This document shows positions 36,106 through 37,316 of a stretch of 44,705 nucleotides of DNA, one piece after another. The notes beneath the pieces are model-generated. The model did not search any database. It saw only the letters and a list, made by a program, of their open reading frames with translations, and was not told the origin of the DNA. Position numbers and translations under genes: made by a program. The first letter of the stretch is position 1. Each line of letters starts with the position of its first letter. This DNA is from an uncultured Eubacteriales bacterium (GTDB lineage Bacteria; Bacillota; Clostridia; Oscillospirales; Acutalibacteraceae), in contig ONCX01000021.1 in the NCBI GenBank assembly GCA_900316455.1, forward strand, positions 1-44,705. Direction: 5' to 3'.

Positions 36106-36801
36106 ATGAAAACTTACCAAATTCATCTGCTGAGACATGGTGTAACTGACGGAAATATAAAAGGTCAGTACATAGGGAGCAAGGACGTTCCTCTGAACGA
36201 AACCGGTATCAGGCATATACGTTTTCTTGATGAAAATTTTGTATATCCAGGAGCCGCCGTATACTTCACAAGCCCGATGCTGCGATGCAGGCAGACCCTC
36301 GAAATAATTTATCCGAGTGCTAATCCTGTCAATATAGCTGAATTCCGTGAGTGTGACTTCGGCGAATTTGAGGGGCTGACTGCCGATGAACTCAGCGGAA
36401 GCAGTGAATTTGCCCAGTGGCTCGCTTCTGACGGAAATTCCGCTCCGCCAAGCGGCGAATCCGGCGTTGAATTCGGCAGGCGAGTATGTCAGGCGTTTGA
36501 AAAGATAGTTGAGGGACTGATGAAAACCGGCGTTCCGTCAGCTTTGATAATGACTCACGGCGGTGTGATAGCCACCATATTGGCTCAATACGGACTTCCT
36601 GAGGCTGGAATGTCCGATTGGATAATGGAGCCTGGCTGCGGCTATTCAATAAGAATACATCCGCAGCTCTGGTCGGCTGCAAAAAAGGTCGAGGTATATC
36701 AGACGCTCCCGCTGCCTAAGGAAAATGATGACGAAGATTATGAAGCTGAGTACCTTATAACTGACGCGCCTTTGCACACGGAAAACAGTAAGCAGGAATA
36801 A
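36106..36801 (+). CDS. Histidine phosphatase family protein (phosphoglycerate-mutase-like)
   Basis: 231 residues from ATG 36106, which has GGAGG upstream. The catalytic RHG motif is LLRHGVTDGN near residue 10, with FTSPMLRCRQTLEII, the proton-donor region RECDFGEFEG and the second His in MTHGGVIA. This pattern fits cobalamin-phosphatase (CobC)-like and general small-phosphatase members better than true phosphoglycerate mutase. Substrate unknown. It is preceded by the divergent XRE gene, which could control it. Confidence 0.9.
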   Translation: MKTYQIHLLRHGVTDGNIKGQYIGSKDVPLNETGIRHIRFLDENFVYPGAAVYFTSPMLRCRQTLEIIYPSANPVNIAEFRECDFGEFEGLTADELSGSSEFAQWLASDGNSAPPSGESGVEFGRRVCQAFEKIVEGLMKTGVPSALIMTHGGVIATILAQYGLPEAGMSDWIMEPGCGYSIRIHPQLWSAAKKVEVYQTLPLPKENDDEDYEAEYLITDAPLHTENSKQE

Positions 36802-36843
36802 AAAAAGCAGCCCGACGTACTGAAAAAAAGTGCGTGCAGGCTG
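36800..36843 (-). terminator. Intrinsic terminator of the HPr-like gene
   Basis: On the minus strand CAGCC/GGGCTG arms, with most inner bases also paired around a T-rich loop, are followed by TTTTTTT. It also ends just at the stop of the plus-strand phosphatase gene. Confidence 0.75.
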
Positions 36844-36864: not shown

Positions 36865-37098
36865 TCAGACAAGATAAGTGGAAATCCTGTCAAGATAAGC
36901 TGCCGCGTTTTCCTCGGTGGCGTGGATTCCGAGCGTAACCTCGTTGTCGAGCGCAAGACCGAATACCGAGAGAATTGATTTCGCGTCGGCAATGTATCTG
37001 CCGGCGATGAGGTCAATGTCAAAGCGCTGCGTCATTGTGATGTTGACGAACTCCTTGATATCGTTTGCCGTCTTGAATTTAATTCTTTTTTTGATCAT
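36865..37098 (-). CDS. HPr-like (Crh-like) protein lacking the catalytic-histidine loop
   Basis: 77 residues. The fold matches HPr, the PTS phosphocarrier: a first strand IKKRIKFKT, helix KEFVNITM, the strand DIDLIAG, then YIADAKSILSVFGLALDNEVTL, which matches the HPr region around regulatory Ser46 (here Ser41), and the final helix. The segment that carries the phospho-accepting His15 (NGLHARPA) is missing, shortened to about TANDI. It therefore cannot act as a sugar phosphocarrier but could still be a target of HPr kinase, as Crh of Bacillus is, and so take part in carbon catabolite control with CcpA. The ribosome-binding site GGAAGGGGG is unusually G-rich and is complementary to the leader stem upstream. 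Confidence 0.85.
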   Translation of the reverse strand: MIKKRIKFKTANDIKEFVNITMTQRFDIDLIAGRYIADAKSILSVFGLALDNEVTLGIHATEENAAAYLDRISTYLV

Positions 37099-37141
37099 TC
37101 AAGCACTTCCCCCTTCCAGATAAAAACAAAATCTATGTCAA

Positions 37142-37209
37142 AGCTGAGGGGGTTACTCCGTGAGCCGTGGAACTAATGTGACGGTTTCACCCTCTGCGGT
37201 CCCTCAGCT
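37142..37209 (-). ncRNA. Structured 5' leader of the HPr-like gene (candidate riboswitch)
   Basis: On the minus strand the predicted transcript begins at or next to 37209, and the first bases AGCTGAGGG (37209-37201) pair with CCCTCAGCT (37150-37142). The enclosed 50 bases hold at least two smaller helices: GTGA-loop-TCAC and TCC-loop-GGA around CACGGCTCAC. The 3' strand of the closing stem continues as CCCCCT (37152-37147) and can pair with AGGGGG in the ribosome-binding site (37109-37114), so the closing stem and the covered ribosome-binding site exclude each other. I do not recognise a known riboswitch family. Confidence 0.55.
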
Positions 37210-37215
37210 GTGAAT

Positions 37216-37244
37216 ATTATAGTGCCTTGTCAATTTTTTGTCAA
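37216..37244 (-). promoter_or_regulatory. Perfect-consensus promoter of the HPr-like gene
   Basis: On the minus strand TTGACA (37239-37244), exactly 17 bases, TATAAT (37216-37221). A second TTGACA lies inside the spacer (37228-37233), too close to be used with this -10. Confidence 0.9.
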
Positions 37245-37316
37245 TGTGCAATTCAACAGACATATTATAAACACTCTACTTGAATTATATTTAAAATACA
37301 AAAATAATAAGTTTGT

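What the first reader, a model, noticed from the sequence alone, without database searches (positions are those of the whole stretch)
37099..37244. Candidate riboswitch-like leader controlling an HPr/Crh-like gene
A perfect promoter places the transcription start at the first base of a nine-pair closing stem (37201-37209 with 37142-37150). The enclosed region has further helices. The 3' strand of the closing stem extends as CCCCCU and is complementary to AGGGGG in the gene's ribosome-binding site. So when the closing stem is formed the ribosome site is free; when it opens, CCCCCU can cover it. That is a translational switch layout, on a gene tied to carbon control, and it fits no riboswitch family I can recall.
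Basis: partly seen in the sequence, partly recalled or inferred. Interest (0 to 1): 0.75.

Follow-up and report, generated by a model that had tools for sequence, protein, structure and literature searches.

The report
Conserved mRNA-start hairpin before HPr-like gene
The messenger RNA of a small HPr-like gene in a genus of gut bacteria seems to begin with a real, evolutionarily kept hairpin, which looks more like a permanent protective cap on the message than the metabolite-sensing switch that was proposed.

Summary
The layout is real. A perfect TTGACA-17-TATAAT promoter puts +1 at 37209, the first base of a 9-bp stem (37209-37201 with 37150-37142). CCCCCU (37152-37147) is complementary to AGGGGG in the ribosome site (37114-37109). 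The gene is HPr-like, without His15 and with the Ser46 region. No Rfam family reaches its threshold. All 17 congeners searched keep gene and promoter; 10 of 17 keep the same leader and 4 more keep the +1 stem with changed sequence, including compensatory changes. This is a genuine structured leader, not found convincingly outside the genus.

The switch reading fails the comparative test. The ribosome-site-blocked fold wins only in the window species (by 2.3 kcal/mol), is near balance in 2 leaders, and loses by at least 4.1 kcal/mol in 12 of 15 scored. Complementarity to the ribosome site stays within shuffles in all 18. Stem arms and the linker after them are nearly invariant while the interior drifts, opposite to a typical aptamer.

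Best explanation: a constitutive 5'-terminal hairpin protecting a strongly transcribed single-gene mRNA, as in ompA or aprE leaders. The fixed stem-plus-linker sequence may also serve an unknown trans factor. Function is inferred; no experiment was run.

The parts
37239..37244 (-). -35 box TTGACA
   Evidence: same box and spacing in 18 of 18 leaders
37216..37221 (-). -10 box TATAAT (TATACT in L016 and L017)
37201..37209 (-). P1 5' arm AGCTGAGGG, beginning at the inferred +1
   Evidence: invariant in 11 of 11 group A leaders
37151..37200 (-). hairpin interior: imperfect P2 helix (CCG/CGG, GAG/CTC, GTGAAA/TTCCAC) and an apical loop with CAC in 10 of 11 group A leaders
   Evidence: 72% mean identity; changes on both sides at 3 of 12 pairs
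37142..37150 (-). P1 3' arm CCCTCAGCT
37127..37141 (-). conserved linker TTGACATAGATTTTG
   Evidence: 95% mean identity in group A; core GACATAGA in 12 of 18 leaders; absent in L016 and L017
37147..37152 (-). CCCCCT, complementary to the ribosome site (alternative pairing; overlaps the P1 3' arm)
37109..37117 (-). Shine-Dalgarno region GGAAGGGGG
36865..37098 (-). HPr-like protein, 77 aa, no His15, Ser46-like KSIL
36800..36843 (-). terminator-like hairpin CAGCC...GGGCTG followed by a T run; suggests a single-gene mRNA
   Evidence: read by eye (similar hairpin plus T run seen by eye downstream in the 17 congeners); the scan, which allows loops of at most 8, did not report it

Best explanation
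It is a constitutive 5'-terminal hairpin leader of a strongly transcribed, single-gene mRNA for an HPr-like (Crh-type) protein. Transcription starts on the first base of the stem, so the 5' triphosphate end is buried in a helix as soon as about 68 nt are made. This should hinder 5' end conversion (RppH-type enzymes) and entry of RNase J/Y, and so lengthen the life of the mRNA, while a strong ribosome site downstream is used. The stem-plus-linker sequence is kept more strictly than structure alone requires, so a bound trans factor may add to this. Shown: the sequence, the conserved fold with compensatory changes, the stem at the promoter-inferred +1, and no convincing copy outside the genus. 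Inferred: the start site itself, transcript strength, protection, lifetime.
For: The +1 stem is kept in 15 of 18 leaders, 11 with identical arms and 4 with changed sequence. Changes on both sides occur at 3 of 9 P1 pairs across leader types (on an alignment fitted to the model) and at 3 of 12 P2 pairs within type A. The 5' domain folds at z -2 or lower in 15 of 18. In 14 of 15 leaders with P1 the minimum-energy fold keeps it. P1 is at about 97% in equilibrium folds of the growing window chain from 68 to 96 nt. Among 85 perfect promoters of this genome it has the most stable fold beginning at +1..+3. L016 and L017 carry a different, shorter hairpin near +1 in their full-leader folds. Synteny (17 of 18) and a downstream terminator-like hairpin fit a one-gene mRNA. 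Precedent: 5' secondary structure stabilises mRNA because RppH and RNase E need single-stranded ends (PMC3997798, passages); [quoted passage not shown] subtilis aprE leader; another title there says B. subtilis RppH recognises G at the second position, which is G here in 14 of 18 leaders by the inferred +1, so a free end would be a good substrate.
Against: A mere protective stem need not keep its sequence, yet both P1 arms are 100% and the linker 95% identical in 11 species, while the interior is 72% and intergenic DNA further upstream 58%. In the window species the equilibrium fold of the full leader is not P1. L014 has a weak 5' structure (z -0.35), and L016/L017 give z +0.3. Several covariation controls are not passed (pairs with double changes 114 of 500 shuffles, further pair types 407 of 500). 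No transcript, start site or half-life was measured. RNase J, RNase Y and RppH were not looked for in this genome.
Confidence: 0.5

Rival explanations
1. The fixed stem plus linker is a recognition site for a trans-acting protein or small RNA (for example autoregulation or carbon control) that sets translation or decay of the HPr-like mRNA.
For: P1 arms invariant and linker 95% identical against a 72% interior in 11 species. The linker core GACATAGA is also present in 3 of the 7 leaders whose interior has been replaced (L006, L010, L014). In the window genome the only other match to the linker pattern with up to 2 mismatches lies antisense to an open reading frame.
Against: No factor identified. 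The linker is gone in L016 and L017 and altered in L002, L003, L008 and L018. No second copy of the element was found in the own genome. Further linker-pattern matches in other congeners were not examined.
Confidence: 0.25
2. Translational riboswitch: ligand binding stabilises P1 and frees the ribosome site; without ligand CCCCCU covers AGGGGG.
For: In the window species the blocked fold is 2.3 kcal/mol better, and P1 collapses once the ribosome site is included. L002 and L007 are near balance (+0.9, +0.8). Interior pairs partly covary, and the apical loop has CAC in 10 of 11 group A leaders.
Against: 12 of 15 leaders favour P1 by 4.1 to 13.9 kcal/mol without any ligand. Complementarity to the ribosome site is within shuffles in 18 of 18 (lowest fraction 0.08). 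The interior is the least conserved part of the hairpin and is replaced in 7 of 18 leaders. In 300 family genomes, matches beyond the genus were four, at E 0.0029 to 0.008 per genome, about what chance gives, though the filters used lose some weak matches. No Rfam match at gathering score; below it only chance-level snoRNA matches on the other strand.
Confidence: 0.1
3. RNA thermometer-like or U-rich occlusion: the U-rich stretch before the ribosome site pairs weakly with GGAAGGGGAAA.
For: RNAalifold predicts this helix on 14 leaders, 9 pairs, none with changes on both sides; many single folds show it. The site is somewhat more occluded than the mean of linker shuffles in 15 of 18 leaders.
Against: No leader falls below 5% of its linker shuffles; two are at 5% (60 shuffles each). 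U:A and U:G pairing with a purine-rich site is expected from composition.
Confidence: 0.06
4. DNA-level feature: the arms are constrained as initially transcribed sequence or as an inverted-repeat operator, and the RNA fold is a by-product.
For: The 5' arm adjoins a conserved TCAC and the promoter. The 35 bases before the -35 box are also conserved, 81%.
Against: The interior helix also has compensatory changes. The spacing between arms varies from 46 to 56 nt in group A. The arms change in a compensatory way in group B and L018.
Confidence: 0.09

Closest known systems
5'-terminal stabilising stem-loops (E. coli ompA and papA; B. subtilis aprE leader)
   Same: Stem at or very near +1, strong ribosome site downstream (anatomy only; the known cases seen as review passages and reference titles).
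   Different: Here the stem and the linker after it are conserved in sequence across species; no stability data; no homology claimed or tested.
Translational riboswitches with ribosome-site sequestration by the 3' arm of the closing stem (recalled)
   Same: In the window species the 3' arm of the closing stem can pair either with the 5' arm or with the ribosome site.
   Different: Alternative pairing not conserved, interior not conserved, narrow distribution, no ligand, no Rfam match.
RAT/antiterminator leaders of PTS genes (LicT, GlcT; recalled, no call)
   Same: Structured leader before a PTS-related gene.
   Different: No terminator-like site reported in the leader.
Crh / HPr family
   Same: Protein matches PTS-HPr, and the family profile matches solved HPr and Crh chains over the Ser46 region; lacks His15 like Crh (Crh trait recalled).
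   Different: 77 aa, weak match to the profile (25.4 bits); the genome also carries two canonical HPr matches.

Membership tests
Riboswitch (translational) | conserved ligand-binding core in the leader | tested here: not met
   Interior 72% identical against 100% for P1 arms; replaced or lost in 7 of 18 leaders
Riboswitch (translational) | conserved mutually exclusive pairing controlling the ribosome site | tested here: not met
   Blocked form better in 1 and near balance in 2 of 15 leaders; complementarity within shuffles in 18 of 18
Riboswitch (translational) | binds a metabolite | not testable with these tools
   needs in-line probing
Known Rfam family | match at gathering score | tested here: not met
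   one search gave only sub-threshold snoRNA matches on the other strand
5'-terminal mRNA-stabilising hairpin | stable stem beginning at or next to +1 | tested here: met
   (start site by promoter position, not mapped)
5'-terminal mRNA-stabilising hairpin | structure kept when sequence changes | tested here: met
   few events, and some controls not passed
5'-terminal mRNA-stabilising hairpin | lengthens mRNA half-life | not testable with these tools
   needs a half-life measurement
RNA thermometer (fourU-like) | ribosome site paired with a U-run beyond chance | tested here: inconclusive
   none of 18 below 5% of linker shuffles, but 15 of 18 more occluded than the shuffle mean
Crh / HPr-like protein | HPr region with Ser46, without His15 | tested here: met
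   the only His of the window protein is at residue 59
Crh / HPr-like protein | phosphorylated by HPr kinase | not testable with these tools
   HPr kinase domain found in 18 of 18 genomes of the genus

The most novel reading that the evidence does not exclude
A genus-specific leader in which an unknown trans factor reads the fixed +1 stem and the TTGACATAGATTTTG linker of the HPr-like mRNA, so that expression of a Crh-type protein is tied to carbon state. In the window species this has been sharpened into a true two-state element in which losing the factor lets CCCCCU close the ribosome site.
Probability: 0.12. Interest if true: 0.6.

Novelty: new member of a known kind. Interest (0 to 1): 0.3.

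Why it matters
If right, it is a clean natural case of a 5'-terminal hairpin kept by selection for one gene in Clostridia, with close species that have replaced the interior while keeping the stem. That is a ready-made series for testing mRNA protection in anaerobes. It also removes a weak lead for a new riboswitch class. The unexplained part is why stem and linker are fixed in sequence.

Tried and rejected
Rfam: window and 17 congener loci at gathering score gave nothing at the leader (one tRNA elsewhere in the window). The leader region with relaxed thresholds gave four snoRNA-type matches at E 3.5 to 8.1, on the other strand, taken as chance. Covariance model R1 from 11 leaders, run on 300 family genomes with strict filters: beyond the genus four matches at E 0.0029 to 0.008 per genome, about the number expected by chance; a motif scan found no HPr-like Ser46 motif in those four loci. 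R1 on the loci of 12 HPr-like genes outside the genus (L019 to L030): no match up to E 1; their upstream DNA was also read by eye, L021 having only 48 bases. Competing 5' alternative stem AGCUGAGGGAC/GUUCCACGGCU: 89% of cells pair in group A, but no pair has changes on both sides and the shuffles equal the observed values; two of its pairs are broken in 5 of 11. Terminator in the leader: none reported. Upstream open reading frame: considered by eye only. The linker elsewhere in the own genome: one match with 2 mismatches, antisense to an open frame; it was searched before examining other congeners' extra matches, which I left.

Corrections of my own steps: one column (P1 excluded minus forced) used a wrong constraint and is not used; one search replaces it. 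My note says P1 is kept in 17 of 18 folds; the correct count is 14 of the 15 leaders that have P1. The 65% upstream value included the start of the neighbouring coding region; one search gives 58% for the intergenic part. Alignment A5 has 28 rows; 12 were dropped before the tally (11 on the opposite strand at the leader, 1 unrelated weak match in L001). L016 and L017 gave no match to R1 at E 0.5 and are not in that tally.

Papers: in PMC11109978, PMC8632094 and PMC6429828 I only searched the main text for HPr, ptsH, phosphocarrier, PTS or phosphotransferase, Ruminococc and Clostridia (only Clostridia occurred, twice, in the third); I looked at no supplements. PMC3997798 and PMC7509114 were seen as passages. 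Other papers only as listings.

Full report
Observation. On the minus strand the promoter TTGACA-17-TATAAT lies at 37244-37216, and the start site by position is A37209. AGCTGAGGG (37209-37201) pairs perfectly with CCCTCAGCT (37150-37142). CCCCCT (37152-37147) is complementary to AGGGGG (37114-37109) before the ATG at 37098. The gene is 77 aa and matches PTS-HPr weakly (25.4 bits, cut-off 23). A profile of 25 relatives aligns with solved HPr and Crh chains over the Ser46 region, from after the His15 segment.

Is it more than chance? A perfect promoter alone is not special: the genome has 85 with this spacing, and the reversed control pattern has none. Among these 85 starts the HPr-like leader has the longest stem beginning at +1..+4 (9 Watson-Crick pairs). 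In 36 of 85 the fold begins within +1..+3; two of those reach -15 kcal/mol, this one (-25.0) and one other (-18.9). A tRNA start folds slightly better overall (-26.0) from +8. The isolated domain gives z -2.51, the full leader z -1.05.

Relatives. A protein search in 60 genomes (own and 59 relatives) found the gene in all 17 congeners and in 15 of 43 genera. A DNA search with the leader in the same 60 found it in 11, own included, all in the genus. Sixteen public contigs with close homologues are metagenome assemblies named as uncultured Clostridiales, Clostridia or Ruminococcus; two titles name goat omasum or abomasum, and several carry RUG labels, a rumen series as I recall. All 18 loci have TTGACA and TATAAT or TATACT with a 17-base spacer. 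Leaders fall into 11 of one type (A: L001-L005, L007, L009, L011-L013, L015), three of type B (L006, L008, L010), L018, L014, and the shorter L016/L017. A divergent dCMP deaminase gene was recognised by motif in 17 of 18 loci; L015, the locus without it, has the shortest stretch.

Structure. In type A the nine P1 pairs never vary, so they show no covariation by themselves. The interior helix has 3 of 12 pairs with changes on both sides; one of these pairs is unpaired in 6 of 11. Controls for the whole structure are mixed. Cells paired are 93.5% against 91.9% in shuffles (3 of 500 reach it), cells with double changes 11 of 500, covariation score 9 of 500, but pairs with double changes 114 of 500 and further pair types 407 of 500. 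Slid versions pair 32 to 51% of cells. Across types, aligned by the model (so leaning to the structure), P1 pairs 4, 5 and 6 show compensatory changes: T-A to C-G, G-C to A-T, A-T to C-G. Type B forms 9 of 9 P1 pairs, L018 8 of 9, L014 7 of 9. The 5' domain folds at z -2 or lower in 15 of 18, not in L014, L016 and L017.

Conservation pattern. In the 11 type A loci, mean identity to the window is 100% for both P1 arms, 95% for the linker after P1, 72% for the interior, 84% for the promoter and 81% for the 35 bases before it, and 58% for the intergenic DNA further upstream. Third codon positions are invariant in 16% of codons. A metabolite aptamer would normally show the reverse, a fixed core inside a variable stem (recalled knowledge). 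The arms and linker are therefore under sequence-specific constraint that I cannot fully explain. The linker core GACATAGA is in 12 of 18 leaders.

Test of the switch. Forcing either state on each leader plus 30 coding bases, the blocked state is better only in the window (-2.3 kcal/mol). It is close in L002 (+0.9) and L007 (+0.8) and worse by 4.1 to 13.9 in the other 12 of 15; three leaders without P1 were not scored. Pairing between leader and ribosome site is within the range of shuffles in 18 of 18 (fractions 0.08 to 0.82). In equilibrium folds of the growing window transcript P1 is at about 97% from 68 to 96 nt and at 1% or less from 104 nt. So the window species itself could in principle refold, but that property is not kept in its genus. 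The ribosome site is partly covered in most folds by the U-rich stretch. Against shuffled linkers none of 18 is below the 5% level, though 15 of 18 are more occluded than the shuffle mean.

Distribution. Model R1 in 300 family genomes (135 genera) found four genus members, own included, and four weak matches elsewhere at E 0.0029 to 0.008 per genome, which 300 searches give by chance; the filters used lose some weak matches. None of these four loci holds the HPr-like Ser46 motif. On 12 loci with HPr-like genes outside the genus R1 gave nothing up to E 1.

Gene context. All 18 genomes of the genus have an HPr kinase domain and at least one canonical HPr match besides this gene; the window genome has two. 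PTS enzyme I (N-terminal domain) was found in 9 of 18, and in 4 of the 8 best genomes. A regulatory, Crh-type role is plausible for the protein, but untested.

Interpretation. A stem that begins on the first transcribed base, is kept by compensatory change, precedes a strong ribosome site and belongs to a one-gene mRNA is the anatomy of 5'-protected mRNAs. One review states that 5' secondary structure stabilises because RppH and RNase E need single-stranded ends, and describes a 5' end-dependent pathway through RNase J in B. subtilis (PMC3997798, passages). A second lists stem-loops and 5' UTRs among protective features and cites the aprE leader stem-loop work (PMC7509114, passages). The primary papers were not read. 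That this leader works so is inference, at about even odds. A bound trans factor is the main rival because of the fixed sequence.

Noticed in passing
window 37245-37262, minus strand, directly before the -35 box: A stretch TGTCTGTTGAATTGCACA is kept in similar form in most congeners, also in ones with a different leader; among 85 perfect promoters of the genome only this one has TGCACATTGACA. A possible activator or UP-type site.
   Followed up: partly
L098, around 1536-1640 (own genome C20): The transcript before a gene that looks like secD by eye (no family search) starts with a strong 12-pair hairpin from +7 and a second long hairpin, MFE -35.8 kcal/mol in 80 nt; no Rfam match.
   Followed up: partly
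L108, around 1536-1600 (own genome C23): A gene that looks like a sodium:solute symporter by eye has a leader with a GC-rich hairpin, the only other perfect promoter whose fold from +1..+3 reaches -15 kcal/mol; no Rfam match.
   Followed up: partly
L010, about 1430-1475: The linker of this congener's HPr leader contains a duplicated GACATAGA(A/T)TATGT unit predicted to form an extra hairpin.
   Followed up: no
genus-wide: The PTS enzyme I N-terminal domain was found in only 9 of 18 genomes (4 of 8 good-quality ones), whereas HPr kinase and a canonical HPr are in all 18: HPr may be purely regulatory in part of the genus.
   Followed up: partly
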